NCBI RefSeq assembly: GCF_001426525.1
Contig: NZ_LMEW01000033.1
Coordinates: forward strand, 186,001-250,000
Length of the DNA: 64,000 bases
Direction of reading: 5' to 3'
Source: Massilia sp. Root133
GTDB lineage: Bacteria; Pseudomonadota; Gammaproteobacteria; Burkholderiales; Burkholderiaceae_D
The notes under the pieces are model-generated. The model had not been told where the DNA came from. It ran no database searches and was given only the letters and a program-made list of their open reading frames with translations. Shown one piece after another: positions 7,358-26,949 of this stretch. Position numbers and translations under genes: made by a program. The first letter of the stretch is position 1. Every line of letters begins with the position of its first letter.

Positions 7358-9499
7358 TTACGCGTTCGGTTCAAGCAGCTCCGTCACGTTGGCGAGGGCG
7401 CGGGTCCACTCCCTCGCAACGAGGGCCTTTAGCTCGTCTTCGAGCTTCCTCCGAGCCTCGTTGTCGAACCAGTCCTTGTTATGCGCAGCAACACGGCTCT
7501 TGTAACCGGAACCTTGCCCCCATTCTTCCACGCAGATTTGCCAGAACGAAGTGTCGGCCTTGAGTGCATCCTTGAATACCGTCTGTCCCATAAGCTGAAC
7601 TTTGCGGAGGAGTTCCTCGTATGACGTGGTGAGCACCCTCACCGCCTGTGTCAGCAGGTCAGTAGCCTCCGCGTAGCGGGGCGTTGATGCCAAAATTTTG
7701 CAGTGGCCGGCGAAGTCATTCACCGCTTTTTCGAGAGCCATCACGGCCAGACGTCGCGCACCATAACCGATATGGTGCGAGTAGCTCAGTTGTGGCCACT
7801 CGCCTTCGCGGCGAACCGCGGCTCGAACGGTACTTGCATACGCCACCTGAATTTGAGCAACCAGGCTTTCTTGAACGTGTGCCTGCACTGCGGGAACGGC
7901 CGCGTTCATCGAGGCCCAAGTGCGCAATGTCTCGCTTGCATCTCGCAAGACGGCGAGTACCCTTTCTTCGCCGTGGTTTTGGAGGAGGGCGCGAGCTCCT
8001 GTTGTGGCTTCACTGAGGCGAGTTCGGAACGAAGCTCGGGCGCGGTTGAGACGCTCGAGCAGGAACTGTTGAGCGTCGGTCGCCGGGTCTTCATTCGCGT
8101 TGTAAAACGCTACTCCCAGGTCCTGCAATCCAAGCGGGTCCAAAGCCAGTGCAATTTGTTCGCCCTTCAGCTCGTAGCCCTCCTGGACGCTATCCACAGG
8201 AATGCTCGTAGCATCGTCCTTCATCGCTAGCGCTTCACTTGGTCGAGGCAGCACTAGAAGTGCCGTGTTAACGTCCAGAGCTCGAACGCCAGCATCCTTG
8301 GCCCGCTCGAGCAGCAACCGTGCCTCGGCAGCTGGCGCGTTGTTGAAAGGTGAACAAAGGACGGCAAGCGTGTGGGTATCGTCAAAGTGAGTTTCGATGT
8401 CTTCGCGCGCTGCGTTCCGGTCGATGCCCTTGGTATCGATGAACCGTACCGTGAGGTCGGCCACCTGAAGAAGCTTGTCTGGAATGACGACCTCGATACG
8501 GCGGGGTAACGTGAAGTCAGAACTCTTCCCGTTGTTGATAGCTGAGAACATGTCCCGTAACCATGCCTTGGGGGATTTCCCTGATGAGCTGTCGTACCAG
8601 ATGTCTCGTTTGTCGCGGCGGTGGAGGTCCATCCTACTCAGCACTTCCACAACGAATTCACGTTGGGTGGGGAACTCTGCTGCTAACTGCTTTGCCGGGT
8701 CAAAGGTAATGCGCTTGCCATCGGCGCCCTTCGTCCGTTGAATGGCCAAGCCGGACATGTTGCGCAGAGCTCGCGCAACTTCCTTCGATACGCCTTGCGC
8801 CTCCTGGCTGCTAGGCCCGTCGTTCTCGGGGGACGGTGTCGCCTTTAGGATGCTGTCCGCGAGGTCTAGGACATCTAATCGCAACTCGTCGTCGCTCTTC
8901 GGCTCGACAATGAGGCCGAACTCTGGGCCGGTGCGTAGATGTACCTCACATACGGTGATGCCTCCACCGCCGACCTCGAGAACTGGCGTCAGCGTTCCGT
9001 CGTCCTTGGGCACCTCCAGCCCCGTCATCTTGCAGATAGCTGTAGATTTTCCCACTCCAATGCTGCCAATAAAGGCAATCTGATGCTCGCGTTTAAGAAG
9101 CATCGCGGCACCCCGTCCCAGTTCATCAACGTACTCAGAAAGGCGGCGCTCGAAGGCGTGTGGAGTGTCTGGCTGGTCACGGAGTGCCACCAGTTCCCGA
9201 GCGACTTGCTCGGCTTCCCACAGCAGGTCTTGGTCTGCGTGGTCCAACGGTGGTCGAGGAAGTACTTGCCAATTCCGGCGCAGTGCCTTTGAGAGGTCCT
9301 CTGCTTCTGGCGTAGCCAGTTGGGCAAGGATGTCTTGAACTTCTTCGACCGCGACTGGGCGGTCGCCGCTTTCGATGCGGGAAAGAACGGCTGGACTAAG
9401 CGAGACCCGCTTCGCCAGGTCGGCCTGCTTTATGCCACTGCGTTCACGCACCTTCATAAGATGGCGGCCGAGTTCAGAAGGTGACCAATATTCATCCAT
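7358..9499 (-). CDS. XRE-HTH / dynamin-like GTPase fusion
   Basis: 713 aa. Residues 10-62 are a Cro/CI-type helix-turn-helix (GRHLMKVRERSGIKQADLAK..VSLSPAVLSRIESGDRPV). Residues 140-460 form a large P-loop GTPase: G1 GSIGVGKST (145-153), threonine-containing switch I near LTPVLEV (170-175), and G3 DTKG (355-358) after a roughly 180-residue insertion. The C-terminal 250 residues are long helices resembling a dynamin-like stalk, with no obvious membrane segment. Dynamin-like GTPases remodel membranes, and several act in phage defence; fusion to a DNA-binding domain is uncommon. The gene is alone, with an extended -10 promoter and a palindrome in its leader, so it probably represses itself. Confidence 0.75.
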   Translation of the reverse strand: MDEYWSPSELGRHLMKVRERSGIKQADLAKRVSLSPAVLSRIESGDRPVAVEEVQDILAQLATPEAEDLSKALRRNWQVLPRPPLDHADQDLLWEAEQVARELVALRDQPDTPHAFERRLSEYVDELGRGAAMLLKREHQIAFIGSIGVGKSTAICKMTGLEVPKDDGTLTPVLEVGGGGITVCEVHLRTGPEFGLIVEPKSDDELRLDVLDLADSILKATPSPENDGPSSQEAQGVSKEVARALRNMSGLAIQRTKGADGKRITFDPAKQLAAEFPTQREFVVEVLSRMDLHRRDKRDIWYDSSSGKSPKAWLRDMFSAINNGKSSDFTLPRRIEVVIPDKLLQVADLTVRFIDTKGIDRNAAREDIETHFDDTHTLAVLCSPFNNAPAAEARLLLERAKDAGVRALDVNTALLVLPRPSEALAMKDDATSIPVDSVQEGYELKGEQIALALDPLGLQDLGVAFYNANEDPATDAQQFLLERLNRARASFRTRLSEATTGARALLQNHGEERVLAVLRDASETLRTWASMNAAVPAVQAHVQESLVAQIQVAYASTVRAAVRREGEWPQLSYSHHIGYGARRLAVMALEKAVNDFAGHCKILASTPRYAEATDLLTQAVRVLTTSYEELLRKVQLMGQTVFKDALKADTSFWQICVEEWGQGSGYKSRVAAHNKDWFDNEARRKLEDELKALVAREWTRALANVTELLEPNA

Positions 9500-9582: not shown

Positions 9583-9806
9583 GCAAGATTTCTCCTAAAA
9601 ATACACATAGAATGAAAACTTGCTTAAAAATAGTTCTGGCTTGAGAAAGAATTCTTGCGCGCTGCGTCGGCAGGGAGACGTCCTGTCATTCCAAGTTGCC
9701 GTGTCGCTGCCTATGCTTGCTCAGCAGGTTGGGTGGCATGAGGCTCGCCAAGCTTTATTGATTTTAAAGCAATGAAATTGCAAAGTAGAAAAATTTCTGA
9801 AAAGCA

Positions 9807-9835
9807 TTTACAGGCATGCTTGAGCCTGATATCCT
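9807..9835 (+). promoter_or_regulatory. Sigma-70 promoter of the structured RNA
   Basis: TTTACA (9807-9812), a 17-base spacer and TATCCT (9830-9835) form a good promoter pointing toward the hairpin region. Transcription would start near 9842. Confidence 0.5.
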
Positions 9836-9839
9836 TGGG

Positions 9840-10171
9840 TCATCTCATCAGCTTCTTGTAAAGCACAAACGTCGAACCAGTCCTCAAAACGCAGGCTGGT
9901 GGTACTAACTTTTGTGCTTTAACAATTCAAAAGAAGCAACGCGACAAGCTGAATCGCCAAGCTTCGGCGCCCATTCTCGGCGCTAGACAAATCCCAGAAC
10001 ACGAAACAGACCGCCAGGCACAGGCCCCGGTTCGGTTTGTTTTCAATACCAAAGAATCAACGCAGCTGGCTGCAGTTCAGCGCCAGTTAGACGCTCCGAA
10101 GCACAGCTATCGACTGTTCGCTTATGCCATACGGAGCAAACTATCTACAAACGCCCCAGCAGGGGCGTTTT
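9840..10171 (+). ncRNA. Candidate structured noncoding RNA
   Basis: About 330 nt without a credible reading frame, from a sigma-70 promoter to an intrinsic terminator. A composite stem has three layers: GCTTCTT (9851) with AAGAAGC (9931), AAAGCACAAA (9860) with TTTGTGCTTT (9911), and ACCAG-CCT (9876) with AGGCTGGT (9893). Further stems are GCGCC/GGCGC at 9967/9979, GAAACAGACCG (10003) with the segment at 10033-10044, CTGGC/GCCAG at 10066/10082, and GCTCCG/CGGAGC at 10093/10132. The terminator ends 64 bases before the ATG of the next gene. Many independent perfect stems argue for a functional RNA. Its class is unknown; no reverse transcriptase or repeat array is present. Confidence 0.5.
10149..10171 (+). 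terminator. Intrinsic terminator of the structured RNA
   Basis: The stem AAACGCCCC / GGGGCGTTT with an AGCA loop and a short T run ends the RNA region just before the ribosome site of the 10236 gene, so read-through would be needed to express that gene from the same promoter. Confidence 0.65.
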
Positions 10172-10235
10172 GCATTTCATACCGGCACGTCGAGCCAAGT
10201 TTCTCCGTGCCCATACCAAACAAAAGGAAAAAATC

Positions 10236-10889
10236 ATGATTGACAATCAAGCCATCGAAACTATGTCGGAAATGCTGTCCCTGATTAAAAAATACGCAAA
10301 AACAGCATATCCCGATGTTGAAACGGAATCATCGACTGAAAGCCGTCGCCGCGCGTGGGTCATCACAACCATGCTGGCGAAGCTTGCTGAACATGCTGCC
10401 GAGAGTGACCTGCAAGCAGTTCTTGCGGACAATGTTTATAGGACATATTCAGAGCGCGAGGGGTACGCCCATGCATCAAAATGCAAGGACAGGGAATTTA
10501 TGCTCCAACTGCATGAGTTCAAGAAGAGAGCAGAAGAATATAAAAACTCTCCAATAACGGGAAAGCAACGGACCGATGGAGACGTGATACGTGAACTCGA
10601 AAATCTCTATCCGCAGCGCGACGGGTTCCACGAACTGCGTGCAGAGTGTACGGGCCGACTGCAATTGAACCTGCCAAAGAAGGAGGAGAAGCGGGCAATG
10701 GCAGACCTAGCCGTTTTTCAGGAGAAGCTTGATAGTATCGAAGAAAAGCTCAACGCGACCGAGGCGCTCGCGTCAAGCCGGGGACTAGCCGTGTCGTTCA
10801 ACAGGTATCGTACTGTTATCGAGAAAGCCAAAAATCGAGGGGGACTGAGCCGCCGCGGCAAAGCCAGTGACGGACGCAAGATGGCTTGA
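10236..10889 (+). CDS. Hypothetical protein downstream of the structured RNA
   Basis: 217 aa. The ATG at 10236 has AAAGGAA (10223-10229) at good spacing; the frame extends upstream into the RNA terminator, which I excluded. The protein is soluble, charged and mostly helical (MIDNQAIETMSEMLSLIKKY..), with a coiled-coil-like region near residues 155-185 (DLAVFQEKLDSIEEKLNA) and a basic tail (GGLSRRGKASDGRKMA) that could bind nucleic acid. No family recognised. Its position directly after a terminated structured RNA resembles RNA-protein cassettes such as type III toxin-antitoxin loci, but the sequence is not ToxN-like. Confidence 0.65.
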   Translation: MIDNQAIETMSEMLSLIKKYAKTAYPDVETESSTESRRRAWVITTMLAKLAEHAAESDLQAVLADNVYRTYSEREGYAHASKCKDREFMLQLHEFKKRAEEYKNSPITGKQRTDGDVIRELENLYPQRDGFHELRAECTGRLQLNLPKKEEKRAMADLAVFQEKLDSIEEKLNATEALASSRGLAVSFNRYRTVIEKAKNRGGLSRRGKASDGRKMA

Positions 10890-10948
10890 GGAAAACTCAT
10901 TTGTACTAGTTCAGACTTGACCTGCCACACACTGACAGATGAGTTAGA

Positions 10949-10988
10949 GTGCTGCGAGACCGGTACCAGTGCTGCGAGACGGGTACCG
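10949..10988 (+). repeat. Two tandem 20-bp direct repeats
   Basis: GTGCTGCGAGACCGGTACCA is followed at once by a second copy with two changes (CGGG for CCGG, and a final G). The pair sits about 70 bases before the GIY-YIG start and could be an iterated regulator site. Confidence 0.5.
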
Positions 10989-11056
10989 GCTAGAGCGGAC
11001 ATTCATTGCAAGTCTATGTTTTTGGTACTCTCAACGTAAAAAGGACCAGGTGGGCT

Positions 11057-11506
11057 ATGAATATCGGAAGCGGACAATTTGTCTACATGGCAATGATGCA
11101 AGACAGCCCGTATTTAGTGAAAATTGGACACTCGCGCAATCCCATCGACAGGGAACGCTCTCTCTTTGACGCCGGGGTTCCAGAGCCGTATCACATGCTA
11201 CACGTCTGGGAGGTACACGACATGCTCCACGTTGAAGAGAGAGTTATACACCCGTGGTTAGAGCCTTTCCGAAATATTTATGGCAAGGAGATATTCCATC
11301 TGGATTACATCTACCCGGACCTAATTGACCCAGAGATATGGGATAGCATAAATGGCTTGAATCTCGCCAACAAGCTCTCCGAAGACATCGACGCTTACCT
11401 CAAACAACGCAATATTGCATACCAGCGGGTCTGGTATAACGACCTTGAGCGATATGACGCTGCCATTCAGGAGCAGAAGAAGTCGTCGAAAGCCCCGCGT
11501 TATTAG
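11057..11506 (+). CDS. GIY-YIG nuclease family protein (T5orf172/MUG113-like)
   Basis: 149 aa. The GIY-YIG core appears as FVYMAMMQDSPYLVKIGHSRNPIDRERSL, with a variant first tyrosine pair, then EERVIHPWLEPFRNIYGKEIFHL containing the conserved Glu and the end of the T5orf172 domain. I chose the ATG at 11057, which has AGGTGG nearby and the domain starting about 8 residues in. Such single-domain GIY-YIG proteins occur on phages and mobile islands as small DNA nucleases. The role here is unproven. Confidence 0.8.
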   Translation: MNIGSGQFVYMAMMQDSPYLVKIGHSRNPIDRERSLFDAGVPEPYHMLHVWEVHDMLHVEERVIHPWLEPFRNIYGKEIFHLDYIYPDLIDPEIWDSINGLNLANKLSEDIDAYLKQRNIAYQRVWYNDLERYDAAIQEQKKSSKAPRY

Positions 11507-13317: not shown

Positions 13318-13479
13318 CCAGGGCATGCGTCTGTGCGCAATCACAATGACGGGAGCAGTACGATGCGGCGCCTTCGGTCGAGAGAAAAGGGTTGCTGCCA
13401 TAGGGGAACGCTCGACGTTCGCGGTACCTTAAAACGCTCGGAAACGTCGACGCTAGACGAAGTGACTCATGCGGGTCGG

Positions 13480-14090
13480 GTGTCCAGCCCGACCCATAAA
13501 GAAGCCCCCGAAGGGGGGCGGCGCTCGCCGTAGGCGATGGCCGACAAAACGAGTGAGGCGACGCGTCGAACAAGCGAAGAACGGCCCAACAGGGCCGTTC
13601 GTAGTGCGCTGAGACCGAGCCGAATGACGGCCCCCAGGCCGGCGTTTTGCGCGGGGGGGCCGCCCGCGACGGAGAGCGCAGAGGAAGGGACGGGCGAATG
13701 CCCGCCCTGACTCGAAGCGAACCGCCGGGTGGGGGCAAAGCCCGCCGACTCCTCTTTCCCGTTTAGAAGAAGCGCCTGCGGGGACCCCGGGCACCGTCGA
13801 GCCCCAACCCGCGGGGCCACGACCGCTGCGCAGCGGCGGGTGGGGAAGGGGAGGGGCGAAGACCGTAGCGTCTATGCGCGTGCGCGTAGATGGCGGAGCC
13901 CCTGTTTTGGACGGGCGCGCAGCGACCGGTTAAAACAGGGGGGGGAGTGGGGTCCCCGCAGGCGCGCCAGCGCCGGAGTCGGCCCACTGTAGGGGAGCGG
14001 GCCCTAGCCCGCAACTACCCGTTCCGCCCTAGCGGGCGAGCGCAGCGAGAGGGTGGTGGCCCCTGATTCAATGTAAGAACCCACCCCAGT
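13480..14090. other. GC-rich hairpin-dense region
   Basis: Far richer in G+C than the rest of the island, with no credible gene. A perfect 17-bp inverted repeat (13772-13788 and 13949-13965) encloses nested structures: a 14-bp palindrome at 13823-13836, a stem at about 13872-13890, and a 10-bp repeat CCCCTGTTTT (13899) / AAAACAGGGG (13932). Short perfect hairpins also occur at about 13505, 13585 and 13700. It lies before a winged-helix gene that may act in replication or mobilization, so an origin (oriV or oriT) is possible. A large structured RNA is an alternative. Confidence 0.45.
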
Positions 14091-17860: not shown

Positions 17861-19135
17861 CTAATTCATTAAAACTTGGTCCAAGAGTTTGCTTGCTGCA
17901 CCCAAGCTTGTACCAAGCATTGGTACTCGCACAATTGCGATTTCATATACATCATTGGCTAAGGTTGCGGAGAACTTTTCGCAATGTCCCCCAGCGCCGG
18001 TTTTTACGCTAACGTCGGGGTATATTAAATACAATTTTTTACACTCGTATTTCGACCCATAAGTAAGAAGTTGATAGATGTCTTCACGTTTTACGCCACG
18101 ATTTTTGGTACTATGGTCGAGCTCTTTCCACTTGGCGTCCAAAATCATTTTCGTCCGGCCTAACGAATCCACTACACGCATATCTGGAATAAGCTCAAAG
18201 ATACCTGTGTTGGCGTTGTCCTGACACAAGAAAGTACCTCGCGATTGTGCATTGGTTACTAAACCTTTAGCTGAAACTACCGCTGCTACCTCTTTAGAAA
18301 TGAATTTCTCAAAAAGTCTAGATGTAAATATAATTTCGCCTACAGCCAAAGTATCTCCGGATAAGGTTCCGGAACCGCGCTCGTCGATAAGTGCTTCGCT
18401 AAGTTTCAGTAACGATAAATAGTAATCTGGCAAGCGGTCTCTTCTAACCCGTGTCCACTCGTTTGCAATATCACTCGATAGAACAACACTATCTAACTCT
18501 GCCGCACATGCGTCAATTTTTGCTCGTATCCCAGCAGAGCAACGAGGCCTATAGAGGTTCAGAACAGCTTTGAAAATTCGGTTCTCAGCAATGTCTTCAG
18601 TAAGGGCAACCCATTCTGAGGCTATCATCCCTGGACGTCGAATACTTTCATAGCACTGTCTTGGAAAGGCAATACGACCTCTAGGTGCATTTAATGACTC
18701 TTGTTTGGTCACGTATCTACGCAATACTAATTTGCGTCGAGCCAACTGAAGTTCCAGACAAAAAGCAGATATCAAAGCCTCATGACGATTCCCGTGGTAA
18801 CTGAGAAGAGTCGCACCTGAACTAACAGAATTAGACGAGCTTGCATATGCAAGCATCGCCGTCAAATTACTGTCCAGTTTTGTAAACTGCTCCTCGGAGA
18901 GAGCATCAGCTCCCATAGGAGCAACCTCTAAACGAAACTTGGAAGTCTCGAGTGTTCCTGACCAAAATTTAGGCGTTATGGAACTTGGCGCAACATCAAA
19001 GTAAGGCCCCGGGTCACTCCTAGTCTCTCGTTTCCATGCCTGAAGAATACATGCAATGTCGTCAAGTCCACGTAATCTTCCTGTTGGACCATACGAAAGC
19101 TTTGTCCATTCTTTACATCGAATTAACGGTTTCAT
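17861..19135 (-). CDS. mcrC: McrC-family nuclease subunit
   Basis: 424 aa. The N-terminal 300 residues are the McrC coupling region that binds the McrB ring. The C-terminal PD-(D/E)xK nuclease shows FELIPDMRVVDSLGRTKMILDAKWK, with Asp318, Asp333 and Lys335 as the catalytic set. McrC cleaves DNA when driven by McrB GTPase translocation. Its start overlaps the mcrB end by 23 bases, so the two are translationally coupled. It is the last gene of the RHH-methyltransferase-mcrB-mcrC operon. Base composition is AT-rich relative to the exopolysaccharide locus, consistent with transfer. Confidence 0.9.
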   Translation of the reverse strand: MKPLIRCKEWTKLSYGPTGRLRGLDDIACILQAWKRETRSDPGPYFDVAPSSITPKFWSGTLETSKFRLEVAPMGADALSEEQFTKLDSNLTAMLAYASSSNSVSSGATLLSYHGNRHEALISAFCLELQLARRKLVLRRYVTKQESLNAPRGRIAFPRQCYESIRRPGMIASEWVALTEDIAENRIFKAVLNLYRPRCSAGIRAKIDACAAELDSVVLSSDIANEWTRVRRDRLPDYYLSLLKLSEALIDERGSGTLSGDTLAVGEIIFTSRLFEKFISKEVAAVVSAKGLVTNAQSRGTFLCQDNANTGIFELIPDMRVVDSLGRTKMILDAKWKELDHSTKNRGVKREDIYQLLTYGSKYECKKLYLIYPDVSVKTGAGGHCEKFSATLANDVYEIAIVRVPMLGTSLGAASKLLDQVLMN

Positions 19136-21140
19136 TGGAGGTCGACGCTAATGTACTGCTCGGTTGAGATTCCTCAGCCATATTTGTCTCGAAAATCTGG
19201 CGAATACAAGCTACCGCATATTGTTCGTCATCGGGGCCAGGTATCAGCTTCGCCCCATTCCAAAATCGAGAGTCAATTCGTAAGTTTCTTGGGGTGGTAT
19301 GTGCACGGTAACCCATCGTTGCAGCCACATCCATATCGACTGAGAACAGCTTGGCAAAATTGTCTTCTTGTGTAGGGAGGACGAAAATCTTCTGCTTTTG
19401 CTCCGGATTTACGCCGAGCACTAGAAGCATAAGCCCTTCGTTGCCATAAAAATACTCTCGAAGAAGCGGAATAATTTTTTTCACCAAACGTTCGATAATC
19501 TGAAGATTGGTCTTGCAGCCGACAAGGTAGCCATGACCAATGCAATGGTCAGCATCAATTAAGTGTTCGATGCGTTCATTTATGCATGTGAGCAACTTCC
19601 CGCAGTCTATTGAAGGTGTATCGTTGGTGGCATTCAGGATTTTTGGTTCCGGGGGCACTTCAACGAAATCAAAACGACGACGTAACGCGTGGTCGACCAA
19701 AGCAATGTTTCGGTCAGACGAGTTCATTGTGCCAATCAGATGGAGATTGGAAGGCATGAATAATCGCGACTCAAGCTCTGATGCATGAGGATACTGTAAC
19801 TCAAAACCTATCGGAAATTCTGCACCAACGCGCTTGTCAGTCTCCATTGCCGAGATAAGCGGCCCCAAAATACGGCTTAAATCTCCGCGGTTAATTTCAT
19901 CAATGACAACTACAAATTCTTTATTGGGGTTTTGAAGCGCTCGACGAATCATGCGCAACAGTACGCCTTCATGAATGCGATAGCTGAGATTTCCATTCGT
20001 AGGGCTTTTTTTATTTTCAGAGGTATCTGATTCTTCACCCACGTCTGTACTATTCGTTTCTTCAGCTACATCATTACTTTCGACAGCGCCCACAACCGGC
20101 CGAATCGATTCTATTAAGTCTTCATATTGGAGTGAAGGGTGGAACGTCACAAACGCACATTGGTCACGATGTTCGTTGAATCTGCCGAATGAAGCAGTAA
20201 AGTCGCCCTTATCATGAAAACTAGGCTCGACAAGCTTAACAGCCTCTCGAACAGCACTCAAAGTTTTCCCAGTTCCTGGTGGCCCATAATATACGCGGAC
20301 TACGGACCGAGTTGAGCTTTTTTTCCGTAGCTGAATCCGTGCGCTCGCGGACGCTAGGTCTTGATAGGCCAAAGCGCGGAACGCTTCAAAATCTTCTAGA
20401 TTCGAAAATGGGAACACATTTTCGGCGAGGTGTTGTGAACACTCAGCGAGTTTACTGAGTTCTTCAAAAAAATCTTCTTTCGATATACTGGTTGGAACTA
20501 CTCGAACACAAATAAAGGACGCAAGAGTCTTTTTAAGAGTGGTGGTGCGTATGTCTTTTAAATTGATGCCTTCAGGGGAGACATCACTAATCGAGCTTTC
20601 ATTTAGAGACGTTATTGGATTAAGTATTAACCCATTTTGGTCCCAATCTAAACTGGAAATTTTTCGTCCAAACATCGATAGGCCTGAGTTCTCTAGGCCG
20701 TCTTTTGCGATGTCGAATAGAAGATTTGAAACTTCGCCAAGTCTATTATTGTTTTGAGCGTTTTGATAATGTGATGCAATACCTAAGACAATGGTTTCTG
20801 CGCGAGGAATGGACATAATGACTGCTCGCCACCCAACATTGCTACGGTATCCATCAAACAAACTCTTCCAATACGGATTGATAGTTGTGAAATGAATTTC
20901 TCCGAGCCACTCTTTATATTTATCTTTGTCCCAACCCTCGTCTTCAAGCTTACGTCTTACAGGCTTTCGAAGCTCGTTCTTCCAAATGTTTTTTGCGTTT
21001 TCTTCGGTATAAAAATTGAAATTGGGCTCAACTCCCCAGCAACTGTCTGAAAAAACTTCTTTCAATTCTTTGATTGCCGAGGAACGTCCGGTTTCACATT
21101 CCGACTTTAATTTTGTTTTGAGAAGCTCGAGTATGGACAT
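19113..21140 (-). CDS. mcrB: McrB-family AAA+ GTPase subunit
   Basis: 675 aa. The AAA+ core has Walker A GPPGTGKT (286-293), Walker B VVVIDEINRGD (410-420) and the McrB signature TMNSSDRNIALVDHALRRRF (471-490), which replaces the NKxD guanine motif. An acidic Ser-rich insertion (355-385) separates the two. The first 270 residues should hold the target-recognition domain; it is not a DUF3578 or EVE domain I recognise, so the recognised DNA is unknown. The gene follows the C5 methyltransferase by 18 bases. This layout recalls LlaJI, where McrB/McrC-like subunits act with methyltransferases as a restriction-modification system. Confidence 0.9.
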   Translation of the reverse strand: MSILELLKTKLKSECETGRSSAIKELKEVFSDSCWGVEPNFNFYTEENAKNIWKNELRKPVRRKLEDEGWDKDKYKEWLGEIHFTTINPYWKSLFDGYRSNVGWRAVIMSIPRAETIVLGIASHYQNAQNNNRLGEVSNLLFDIAKDGLENSGLSMFGRKISSLDWDQNGLILNPITSLNESSISDVSPEGINLKDIRTTTLKKTLASFICVRVVPTSISKEDFFEELSKLAECSQHLAENVFPFSNLEDFEAFRALAYQDLASASARIQLRKKSSTRSVVRVYYGPPGTGKTLSAVREAVKLVEPSFHDKGDFTASFGRFNEHRDQCAFVTFHPSLQYEDLIESIRPVVGAVESNDVAEETNSTDVGEESDTSENKKSPTNGNLSYRIHEGVLLRMIRRALQNPNKEFVVVIDEINRGDLSRILGPLISAMETDKRVGAEFPIGFELQYPHASELESRLFMPSNLHLIGTMNSSDRNIALVDHALRRRFDFVEVPPEPKILNATNDTPSIDCGKLLTCINERIEHLIDADHCIGHGYLVGCKTNLQIIERLVKKIIPLLREYFYGNEGLMLLVLGVNPEQKQKIFVLPTQEDNFAKLFSVDMDVAATMGYRAHTTPRNLRIDSRFWNGAKLIPGPDDEQYAVACIRQIFETNMAEESQPSSTLASTSNETVNSM

Positions 21141-21158
21141 ATAAAGTTGCCAGTATTC

Positions 21159-22529
21159 TTATGCTGTCAATGCGAAATTTTCGATAGATGAGCTATCGAC
21201 TGAAGAAACCTTTTTAACTGCAATCATAGAATCTAGAATGGACAGAAGTTCTCGGATAGTATGGCCTAGCCCTTCTGCCAATAATGGAGGTACTGCATTG
21301 CCTACCTGCGAGCATCGAGCGACATCAAGCTTTCGTCGTGGACCATTGATAGTATAGCGCCCATAAAAGTAGAAATCATCTGGAAAAGACTGAAGGCGGG
21401 CCATTTCTCGAACAGTTATGTTACGAGGCTCCACGTAATGAATAAACTCATCTGGGTGTGTTGTAATCGTCGAAACCACTTTGTCTTTGTCGATTAGGAC
21501 CTTTTTATCTTTTTTGGTCTCATTTGCAAGCAGAAATGCTTTCGACAATCGGCCTGGAGGTTGAGTCTCATGCGCATGTTGGTAAAGCTCTGTAATTCGG
21601 GAGCCATGTTTGGAAAAACGGTGCGAGTTTGGCACGCTGCCTGTAAGGTGTCCTCGTCGCATTGCCTTAGCATAAGAAGATACCGCGTCGGAGTAGGTGG
21701 CCGAATCGAATTTTTCGGAGTCGGGGCAAGGCAGTCGCGACCCTCCATGCAGGTCGTGTATTGCCTCCTCTGCCGTAACACTCTTGGTAGGGTGAAGACC
21801 CCAGTGTGTTCTAACACTTTTGGCTGCATTGTTTATTGCATTAACAAATAATTTTCTAAGCTCTTCTCTGCCAAGCGGGCAATCCTGGACTCCAACGATT
21901 GCTACACGCTTCCTGGCCTGTGGAACGCCAAACATACTTGCATCTAGAACTTCAAAGGTTCCCGTATAGCCCATTTCTTCGAGACGCTCAATGACTGCGT
22001 CTGCAACAGAAGTCTTATCTTCACCAGGTCGAGCCACAAACCGTTTTGCGATTCCTTCTACGTTCTCAATGAGTACAACGCGTGGACGTACCAGTCCAAC
22101 CATGTCTAGCATTTGGAATACAAGGGTATTACGTTCGTCTGCACCGTCGCGTTTTCCACCAACGCTAAATCCCTGACATGGAGGACCTCCTGCCATGAGC
22201 GTAACCTTGCCGCGTAATTCGCTGACATTTTTTCTAAATTCTGAGTCTTTTAGAAGGGCAACAATGTCATGATTTTTCTTGGGAAGCCAGTCGGGCCAAT
22301 TTTTATATGTACTATAATTCGCCCCTTCCTGAATCAGATTGTTGCTTAATGTTTCAAATGCCATCGGGTCTCGCTCAATAGCAAAAATGCCGTCCCATCC
22401 TGCCTCATGCAAACCAAGCGAAAGGCCGCCGCATCCGGCGAATAGGTCTATGCATGAAAAACTAACTTTCTTTTTTTGTTTCATTTTGAATAATCTAGGA
22501 ATTTGATTTTCGTTTGTCACAGTCAGCAT
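21159..22529 (-). CDS. DNA (cytosine-5) methyltransferase
   Basis: 456 aa. Motif I is DLFAGCGGLSLGL (28-40), motif IV GGPPCQGF with the catalytic Cys (118), motif VI ENV (155), motif VIII QARKR (204-208) and motif X QVGNAVPPLLAEGLG near residue 410. It transfers a methyl group from SAM to cytosine C5; the target sequence cannot be read from here. The ATG at 22529 overlaps the RHH gene by 35 bases; an ATG at 22484 is an alternative. It probably protects host DNA from the adjacent McrBC, or its methylation sets the McrBC target. Confidence 0.9.
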   Translation of the reverse strand: MLTVTNENQIPRLFKMKQKKKVSFSCIDLFAGCGGLSLGLHEAGWDGIFAIERDPMAFETLSNNLIQEGANYSTYKNWPDWLPKKNHDIVALLKDSEFRKNVSELRGKVTLMAGGPPCQGFSVGGKRDGADERNTLVFQMLDMVGLVRPRVVLIENVEGIAKRFVARPGEDKTSVADAVIERLEEMGYTGTFEVLDASMFGVPQARKRVAIVGVQDCPLGREELRKLFVNAINNAAKSVRTHWGLHPTKSVTAEEAIHDLHGGSRLPCPDSEKFDSATYSDAVSSYAKAMRRGHLTGSVPNSHRFSKHGSRITELYQHAHETQPPGRLSKAFLLANETKKDKKVLIDKDKVVSTITTHPDEFIHYVEPRNITVREMARLQSFPDDFYFYGRYTINGPRRKLDVARCSQVGNAVPPLLAEGLGHTIRELLSILDSMIAVKKVSSVDSSSIENFALTA

Positions 22530-25163: not shown

Positions 25164-25712
25164 TCATTTAAGAGCCTCACTATAGCCTGCCACTCCTTGC
25201 TGTCGAAGCCGTTGACGCGCCTCCTTGTACTGCTTTCGTGTAAGTCCGTAGCCGCTTTTACACAGCACTACGTGCCCGTCGTACGCCAGTGGCGAGTGCA
25301 TGAGCGTGTAGCCGCTGTTGGTGTCATCGATGACCAGGAACGGCTGTTCAGCCTGGCGGTGCGCATCAAGCCACCATTCAATTTCATCACGTCGGCTCGA
25401 CGATAGCGCCCGTGGCGTTTGCCACTCTGTATGCAGATTTGCGACTACGAACTGCAGCTCTGTGCGCGTGAGCGCCTCGCACATCTGTTCCCGGCTAAGA
25501 TACGTGGCCCAGCTCGAGCTGATGACAAACCACGGGTTGAACTCGTCGTTCAGTAGACGCAAATTCGCTGCAGCTTCAGCATCGACTAGGTTCTTCCACA
25601 ACTCGGGATAGTCTGGAATCTTCCCTTGGACAATCTTCAGAACCTGACCGCTGTGGTGCACGTCGCTCAGGCACAACACATCGTCTAAGTCCAGGAATAG
25701 GAGCGGCCTCAC
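25164..25712 (-). CDS. HAD-fold protein (HAD_SAK-like)
   Basis: 182 aa from GTG 25712, which overlaps the preceding stop as GTGA. Motif I is LLFLDLDDVLCLSD with the two Asp residues of HAD phosphatases; FVISSSWATYL gives motif II, and FLVIDDTNSG the acidic motif IV. This matches the small HAD domains found in RNA-repair and island proteins. It may act on nucleotide or RNA phosphates. Translation is coupled to the 25709-26017 gene, so the two work together or share control by the palindrome at 26033. Confidence 0.7.
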   Translation of the reverse strand: MRPLLFLDLDDVLCLSDVHHSGQVLKIVQGKIPDYPELWKNLVDAEAAANLRLLNDEFNPWFVISSSWATYLSREQMCEALTRTELQFVVANLHTEWQTPRALSSSRRDEIEWWLDAHRQAEQPFLVIDDTNSGYTLMHSPLAYDGHVVLCKSGYGLTRKQYKEARQRLRQQGVAGYSEALK

Positions 25713-26017
25713 GCATTGGCCTCTAGCTTTGCCGGCTCGATGCGCAGGCGTCCGCCGAGGTAGTGTTCCACGCCCAGGCACCACCGCCGAACGCTTGGCT
25801 GAGCACGAAGCGGTTCTACTGCCGCTGTTAGCCTGCCATCGTCACCAATGTAGATAGCACGAAACGCGGCCAAGGGTGGACCATTTACACTGCTGCTCTC
25901 AAGTGAGAATACTGCGTTTAAGCCCTGTCGAAACAGCTCACATGCGTCATCGTTGTCAATCGGTCCCAGTCGTTCAATCAAGTAGTCGACCTGCTGCAGC
26001 ACAATTTCCCGGCTCAT
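25709..26017 (-). CDS. Hypothetical protein, partner of the HAD gene
   Basis: 102 aa. I chose the ATG at 26017 because GGAGAGC sits 6-7 bases before it; ATGs at 26029 and 26041 fall next to or inside an operator palindrome. The sequence (DYLIERLGPIDNDDACELFRQGLNAVF..VRRWCLGVEHYLGGRLRIEP) suggests a small mixed alpha/beta protein. No family recognised. Confidence 0.6.
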   Translation of the reverse strand: MSREIVLQQVDYLIERLGPIDNDDACELFRQGLNAVFSLESSSVNGPPLAAFRAIYIGDDGRLTAAVEPLRAQPSVRRWCLGVEHYLGGRLRIEPAKLEANA

Positions 26018-26752: not shown

Positions 26753-26899
26753 GCTTGGGGAGAATTTTGGGGAAAAAAGGGGAAAAAAGAGACTGAATTT
26801 CTTCCTAATACTGCTTCCTCTTGCGCACTGCTGCCGATTACAATAGTCAGTAATTTCAAAGAGTTACAGTTTTCATGCGGGTTTCCGGCTGGAAAATCA

Positions 26900-26949
26900 T
26901 TGGCCTCCGAAGCCAAGGGTCGTGGGTTCGATCCCCGCCAGCCGCGCCA
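26900..26949 (+). mobile_element. att site: 3' half of tRNA-Arg(CCG), right end of island
   Basis: The sequence contains an anticodon arm TTGGC-CTCCGAA-GCCAA (CCG anticodon, 26900-26916), a variable region, a T arm with TTCGATC loop (26922-26938), the 3' acceptor strand and CCA (26949). The 5' acceptor strand and D arm are missing. Tyrosine integrases that enter tRNA genes rebuild the gene at one end and leave such a 3' copy at the other. The orientation places the intact gene left of the window. Confidence 0.75.

What the first reader, a model, noticed from the sequence alone, without database searches (positions are those of the whole stretch)
9807..10889. Structured 330-nt RNA paired with an unknown 217-aa protein
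A promoter with 17-bp spacing, a three-layer long stem (9851-9937), at least four further perfect stems and a terminator fill a gene-free stretch directly before an unrecognised basic-tailed protein. It fits no class I can name: no reverse transcriptase (retron), no tandem repeats (ToxIN), no riboswitch core. This could be a new RNA-protein system.
Basis: partly seen in the sequence, partly recalled or inferred. Interest (0 to 1): 0.75.

Follow-up and report, generated by a model that had tools for sequence, protein, structure and literature searches.

The report
Island-borne structured RNA with partner protein
A mobile DNA island in a bacterium carries a folded RNA gene followed directly by a gene for an unknown protein; the same pair sits in a related bacterium, with the RNA's first fold kept by paired base changes, so it looks like a real RNA-protein unit whose job is still untested.

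Summary
Window 9842-10178 is a promoter-to-terminator stretch that folds far better than shuffles (z -4.3 to -4.95). Relatives found are very few: one intact pair (Massilia soli, protein 47% identical) and one decayed copy in a congener (gene cut after about 25 codons). All three share promoter spacing, RNA, terminator, a bulged hairpin before the start codon, then the gene or its stump. The two other RNAs keep one fold (61 consensus pairs, 3 double changes). The middle of the RNA does not align. Three distant protein relatives lack the RNA. No significant Rfam, Pfam, PHROG, PADLOC, NCBIfam or PDB match names either part. The pair lies in a ~31-kb tRNA-Arg island with McrBC and other defence-type genes. 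Best reading: an RNA-controlled protein operon laid out like ToxIN or AbiF, most likely with the RNA in excess and holding the protein in check, but with unrelated parts. Structure and co-occurrence are shown; binding, toxicity and defence are inference.

The parts
9807..9835 (+). promoter-like -35/-10 (TTTACA, 17 nt, TATCCT, TG before -10)
   Evidence: M. soli has TTGCCA-17-CATAGT with TG, the third copy the same hexamers
9842..10178 (+). structured RNA (5' end estimated from the -10, not mapped; 3' end at terminator)
9851..9935 (+). 5' domain: outer stem, long stem, apical hairpin; conserved fold
   Evidence: best place of model R2 in the 64-kb window, 15.8 bits, E 0.041, next place 15.5 bits; E 2.9e-4 in 461 nt; 14 of 27 pairs with double changes on the three-row alignment
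9876..9900 (+). apical hairpin with loop CAAAACGC; loop is CACAACGC in the other two copies
9966..9984 (+). hairpin GGCGCC/GGCGCU in the middle part (not aligned to relatives)
10003..10043 (+). long hairpin of the middle part (not aligned to relatives)
10065..10087 (+). hairpin GCUGGCUGC/GCGCCAGU of the middle part (not aligned to relatives)
10093..10137 (+). stem GCUCCG/CGGAGC with inner hairpin, middle part (not aligned to relatives)
10149..10177 (+). intrinsic terminator, two compensatory pairs versus M. soli, tail TTTGCATTTC conserved
10184..10211 (+). bulged hairpin GGCACG[UC]GAG-loop-CUC-CGUGCC between terminator and ribosome site; its 8 modelled pairs are identical in M. soli, the loop is not
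   Evidence: exact pattern in 2 of 385 family genomes
10224..10228 (+). ribosome-binding site AAGGA
   Evidence: read
10236..10889 (+). 217-aa protein P0001, predicted all-helical, basic end (net +9 from residue 181)

Best explanation
It is a two-part mobile module. One promoter at 9807 makes a ~335-nt structured RNA that mostly ends at the terminator at 10149-10177; occasional read-through makes the mRNA for the 217-aa helical protein, so RNA is always in excess. I propose that the RNA, through its conserved 5' domain, binds the protein (perhaps its long helical C-terminal part, which among the copies found only the two RNA-bearing intact ones have; basic ends are on all five) and keeps it inactive, and that loss of the RNA, for example when a phage shuts down host transcription, frees the protein, which harms or arrests the cell: an RNA-checked toxin or abortive-infection protein, working like ToxIN or AbiF with unrelated parts. 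SHOWN: conserved fold, conserved order of parts, linkage in both intact copies found, island location. INFERRED: transcription itself, read-through expression, RNA-protein binding, toxicity, defence role.
For: Same order promoter-RNA-terminator-bulged hairpin-gene in M. soli and, with the gene cut after about 25 codons, in G222. No second promoter listed between terminator and gene in window or M. soli. RNA fold kept. Changes avoid paired columns in the two close RNAs (12 of 122 paired vs 50 of 118 unpaired columns; the structure is their own consensus). Island with integrase and tRNA att repeat carrying McrBC, a cytosine methylase and other defence-type genes; the decayed copy lies beside an AbiEi/AbiEii pair, the M. 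soli copy beside an integrase. Sporadic: 5 of 392 family genomes, own included, have a protein match at E 0.001. Precedent for the layout: AbiF with RCd22 (PMC12373285, passages) and type III systems (PMC5086642, passages).
Against: Three of the four relatives lack the RNA: no special upstream fold, no R1 match up to E 5, no R2 match better than E 0.97. The middle of the RNA is unlike between window and the others (119 of 150 and 107 of 120 random sequences of equal stability score as well or better); over the whole body 8 of 60 of these and 4 of 100 plain shuffles do. R2's hit in the window is only 0.3 bits above the next place. No toxin fold or catalytic motif is recognised; the model is modest (pLDDT 75, pTM 0.46). 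The separate hairpin at the ribosome site suggests ordinary feedback control instead. Only three copies were found.
Confidence: 0.33

Rival explanations
1. Cis-acting leader: the RNA is the 5' leader of the protein's mRNA, an attenuator, and the protein binds its own leader (the bulged hairpin at 10184-10211 or the 5' domain) to set its own level. No RNA works in trans.
For: Terminator directly before the gene; the hairpin next to the ribosome site keeps all 8 modelled pairs and a 2-nt bulge while its loop changes length and sequence between window and M. soli; in the third copy one A-U becomes G-U. This is how a protein-binding site would look.
Against: A 335-nt leader with a separate multi-stem 5' domain is large for simple feedback; the RNA of the decayed copy folds as well as the others (z -4.95) although its gene is cut, but the cut may be recent.
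Confidence: 0.3
2. Independent island sRNA: the RNA is a trans-acting regulator of the island (integrase, transfer) or a structural RNA, and the protein, perhaps a nucleoid-type DNA binder, is only its neighbour.
For: Two of five family members hit histone H1-like models through their K/A-rich ends, best E 2.5e-6 in Pfam for one member; the RNA outlives the gene in G222; an sRNA needed for mobilisation is known for SGI1 (PMC9299015, title and abstract start seen).
Against: RNA and gene stay together in both intact copies, in regions that otherwise share only an HAD gene and one weak 53-residue match of the HTH protein (E 1.3e-4) among the ORFs compared (20 kb of the M. soli region).
Confidence: 0.22
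3. Ribonucleoprotein effector: the RNA is not an inhibitor but the working or guide part of a complex with the protein, used against phage or rival elements; the unaligned middle part would be its variable, target-facing region.
For: Conserved ends around a middle that does not align between window and the other copies; defence-rich island.
Against: The middle is conserved between M. soli and its congener G222; no nuclease or other effector domain seen.
Confidence: 0.1
4. DNA element (origin, transfer or recombination site) or chance structure, not an RNA.
For: Palindromes work on both strands of DNA, and the 5' domain's antisense also folds well in the window (z -4.22); R2 also gives 9.5 bits on the minus strand there; other stretches nearby fold as well.
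Against: The sense strand folds better than antisense in window and M. soli (-4.31 vs -2.98 and -3.94 vs -1.16); G-U-keeping and compensatory changes follow RNA rules; promoter and terminator frame it.
Confidence: 0.05

Closest known systems
AbiF/RCd22 (Abi_2 family protein with abiF RNA, Rfam RF03085; PMC12373285, passages seen)
   Same: promoter, structured RNA, intrinsic terminator, no promoter seen before the gene, then the protein gene; mobile or defence setting
   Different: protein has no Abi_2 match; RNA reaches no Rfam family; RNA about 335 nt instead of 132; extra hairpin at the ribosome site
Type III toxin-antitoxin ToxIN/CptIN/TenpIN (PMC5086642, passages seen)
   Same: RNA gene, terminator, protein gene under one promoter
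   Different: no tandem repeats in the RNA; protein has no Pfam match and is predicted all-helical
AvcID (RNA antitoxin of about 280 nt with a deoxycytidylate deaminase; PMC10511110, passages seen)
   Same: a long RNA before an otherwise unrelated protein
   Different: deaminase vs helical protein without a known domain; that paper predicts no terminator between avcI and avcD, here there is one
Protein-bound mRNA leaders (e.g. ribosomal leaders; PMC7247131, abstract start seen)
   Same: structured RNA upstream of a gene in the same transcript
   Different: no binding known; separate terminator-ended RNA with its own conserved 5' domain

Membership tests
Type III toxin-antitoxin (ToxIN, CptIN, TenpIN) | one promoter, RNA, Rho-independent terminator, downstream protein gene | tested here: met
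   (sequence evidence only; transcripts not mapped)
Type III toxin-antitoxin (ToxIN, CptIN, TenpIN) | antitoxin made of tandem repeats | tested here: not met
   the one array in 9700-11100 lies after the gene (10948-10987); one search finds one 11-nt pair 167 nt apart in 9800-10240 and none in the other two regions
Type III toxin-antitoxin (ToxIN, CptIN, TenpIN) | toxin of the ToxN-type endoribonuclease families by sequence | tested here: not met
   no Pfam or PADLOC family for P0001; in NCBIfam only a sub-threshold SicP match, E 0.098, 12.4 of 99 bits
Type III toxin-antitoxin (ToxIN, CptIN, TenpIN) | ToxN fold | tested here: inconclusive
   model all-helical, modest confidence, no Foldseek match at E 0.001
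AbiF system | Abi_2/AbiD/F protein | tested here: not met
   no Pfam family up to E 5 for P0001
AbiF system | abiF RNA motif | tested here: not met
   no such match at gathering or at E up to 5 in 9780-10260
AbiF system | RNA binds and restrains the protein | not testable with these tools
   needs co-purification and toxicity tests
Retron | reverse transcriptase beside the RNA | tested here: not met
   the gene before (HTH/GTPase-like), P0001 and the gene after (T5orf172) show no RT domain
Known riboswitch or RNA family | Rfam match at the curated threshold | tested here: not met
   (only a chance-level Atu_C8 match on the minus strand, E 4.7)
Autoregulated leader | protein binds its own leader | not testable with these tools
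   conserved hairpin at the ribosome site is only suggestive

The most novel reading that the evidence does not exclude
A new class of RNA-protein module of mobile islands: a non-repetitive structured RNA with a conserved 5' multi-stem domain (loop CAMAACGC) that binds and controls, or works together with, a so far unnamed helical protein with a basic end, giving island maintenance or phage defence.
Probability: 0.4. Interest if true: 0.8.

Novelty: new variant of a known kind. Interest (0 to 1): 0.55.

Why it matters
RNA genes placed before and acting on a protein gene include ToxIN, AvcID and AbiF; Abi_2/AbiF proteins have structural links to ancestral Cas13 (PMC12373285, abstract passage). 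A further one with unrelated RNA and protein would show that RNA-checked proteins arose more often than the known families suggest, and two small cloned parts make it directly testable.

Tried and rejected
Searches without a relative: DNA 9800-10900 in plasmids, P0001 in plasmids and phages, alignment A1 in viral contigs, P0001 alone in genome contigs.

Weak protein matches not believed: NCBIfam SicP at E 0.098, PDB a designed protein at E 1.5.

HEPN idea (motif R-x4-6-H recalled): P0001 has REGYAH at 74-79 but the position is not kept in the other four rows; rejected.

Coding alternative for 9842-10236: one frame is open for 125 codons in the window, but the M. soli frames are broken by stops and unlike it by eye; rejected. 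A TTG ORF from 10170 only extends P0001 upstream through the hairpin.

Whole-RNA structural alignment of window with M. soli by a small LocARNA-like program of mine: 8 of 60 equal-stability random sequences and 4 of 100 plain shuffles score as well. 5' domain: 2 of 150, its core 3 of 150; against the third copy 8 of 120. Middle: 119 of 150 and 107 of 120. Only the 5' domain claim is kept. Sequence alone: the RNA body's best local alignment is no better than shuffles (232 of 500). Shuffles on two sequences alone were not decisive (147/500; 53/500). Alignment A9 held an antisense row of L061; its count is not used, A10 without that row is. A10 is fitted to the model, so its counts lean towards the structure.

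R2's top place in the window (15.8 bits) is just above the second (15.5 bits, 20999-21086), which has five broken pairs against one.

The hairpin pattern gave 41 viral stretches against 9 and 17 for two control patterns; 11 of the 41 are one phage group and several others are duplicates; none shows the terminator in the 45 bases before it. R1 gives L043 E 0.0078 and L016 E 0.055. I treat them as unrelated, but the excess over the controls is not fully explained. Pattern CAGGGGCNNTTTGCATTTC in viral contigs: two stretches, not followed. Weak R1 places in G339, G179 (two) and a second in G222, E 0.016-0.083, had nothing better than E 0.14 from R2 in their loci.

Fold comparisons: Foldseek PDB 0 matches at E 0.001, BFVD 0; VIA-align rows shown have Z 8.9-10.7, mostly helix pairs, which the tool says is common for helical models; no fold named.

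Papers: four searches, 10 of 15, 84, 11 and 77 papers listed; titles and abstract starts seen; passages read in three papers. None of the listed titles or abstract starts names this RNA or protein; that is all I can say about print.

Full report
WHAT IS THERE. Between a divergent gene for an HTH protein with weak GTPase/dynamin-type matches (7358-9499 minus) and P0001 (10236-10889) lies a stretch with a promoter-like site, a strongly folding RNA, a terminator, a second small hairpin and a ribosome site. The RNA folds at z -4.95 and -4.61, better on the sense strand.

RELATIVES. P0001 has a match in 5 of 392 family genomes, own included; alignment A1 matches 2 of 399 order genomes; P0001 matches 1 of 62 of its genus and 1 of 17 of the M. 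soli genus. Only M. soli is close (47% over residues 1-197). The other three share the N-terminal region with the motif E-x-RRRAW but lack most of the long C-terminal part; all five have basic ends (net +7 to +14 in the last 40 residues). Their upstream regions show no special fold (z -0.64, -1.04, -1.76), no R1 match up to E 5 and no R2 match better than E 0.97.

THE SECOND AND THIRD RNA. In M. soli the same order is found: TTGCCA-17-CATAGT with TG, an RNA with z -3.73, terminator GAGCCCC/GGGGCTC followed by TTTGCATTTC, the bulged hairpin, then the gene. A covariance model of terminator plus hairpin (R1) matched 5 of 378 family genomes at E 0.1, of which three are strong: own, M. soli and G222 (84.7 bits); in 359 order genomes it matched own and M. 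soli only, at E 0.01. G222 is of the M. soli genus, where the protein search had not matched it. There the RNA (z -4.95) is followed by a gene start of about 25 codons, 12 identical and 7 synonymous to M. soli, which then runs into the remnant of an HAD-type gene (44-45% to the HAD proteins of window and M. soli): a decayed copy.

CONSERVED FOLD. Between M. soli and G222 the RNA body has 61 consensus pairs, none broken, three with changes on both sides and six on one side. Because a consensus favours itself, I also took the structure predicted from one sequence and tested it on the other: 10 of 68 and 19 of 81 pairs break, against 13.2 and 24.6 expected if the same substitutions fell at random within paired columns (P 0.031 and 0.0046). 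Model R2, built from only the first 96 columns of these two, has as its best place in all 64,000 bases of the window, both strands, 9851-9935 plus (15.8 bits, E 0.041; the next place has 15.5 bits); in the 461 bases around the RNA E is 2.9e-4. On the three-row alignment 78 of 79 cells pair and 14 of 27 pairs have changes on both sides, against at most 2 when the partners are slid (alignment fitted to the model). The apical loop is CAAAACGC in the window and CACAACGC in the others. An independent structural alignment agrees for the 5' domain (2 of 150 and 8 of 120 random sequences of equal stability do as well) and finds nothing for the middle.

THE SMALL HAIRPIN. Between terminator and ribosome site both intact copies have GCACG-UY-GAG-loop-CUC-CGUGC: eight pairs identical, loop of different length. 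In the third copy one A of the 5' arm is G, facing U. The exact pattern occurs in 2 of 385 family genomes. It looks like a recognised site; whether the protein reads it is untested.

THE PROTEIN. Predicted as six helices, mean pLDDT 75, pTM 0.46, residues 202-217 of low confidence; basic end (net +9 and +15 from residue 181 in the two close proteins). No Pfam, PHROG or PADLOC family for P0001, only sub-threshold or chance-level NCBIfam and PDB matches, and no significant fold match.

SETTING. A tRNA-Arg(ccg) at contig C33 181413-181488 is followed by an integrase gene (181614-182840; Pfam Phage_integrase); 51 bases of the tRNA end recur at 90% at window 26899-26949. So the pair is cargo of an island of about 31 kb with McrBC, a cytosine methylase, HNH, NYN and T5orf172/PDC-S57 genes. 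The M. soli copy lies next to an integrase, with murI-like and ParA-like genes near (these two named by my reading of the translations), and the decayed copy beside AbiEi/AbiEii. Among the ORFs compared, window island and 20 kb of the M. soli region share besides the pair an HAD_SAK_2 gene (44%) and one weak 53-residue match.

READING. The layout, rarity, island home and rapid sequence change of an RNA whose 5' fold is kept point to a selfish or defensive module. I commit to an RNA in excess over a read-through mRNA that restrains the protein (0.33), close rivals being a cis leader with feedback (0.30) and an unrelated island sRNA (0.22). It works like ToxIN or AbiF at most in layout; by the tests above it is not a member of either.

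Noticed in passing
C33:181413-181488 to window 26899-26949: tRNA-Arg(ccg), integrase and a 90% copy of 51 tRNA bases mark a genomic island of about 31 kb; the Rfam tRNA match at 26885-26946 is its far end.
   Followed up: yes
window 17861-22529: McrC-like (PF10117), AAA (McrB-like by position) and C5 cytosine methylase genes side by side.
   Followed up: partly
window 25164-25784; L057:823-1347; L066:7975-8373: HAD_SAK_2 gene (Pfam in the first two) recurs near all three RNA copies; in G222 a remnant (44-45% identical) follows the cut P0001 relative.
   Followed up: partly
window 10948-10987: two head-to-tail copies of a 20-bp unit AGTGCTGCGAGACCGGTACC between P0001 and the T5orf172 gene.
   Followed up: no
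window 11057-11506: T5orf172 domain protein, also PADLOC PDC-S57 (E 2.5e-9), right after P0001; no match to it among the M. soli ORFs compared.
   Followed up: no
L016:4201-4227 and relatives: a group of 11 viral contigs has a look-alike bulged hairpin GCACGTTGAG..CTCCGTGC directly before an ATG; in L016 it lies between large genes that I read as phage genes. Pattern hits exceed two controls (41 vs 9 and 17).
   Followed up: partly
window 7601-7800 minus, 13401-13700 plus: stretches with fold z lower than the RNA's own 200-nt windows in a rough scan.
   Followed up: no
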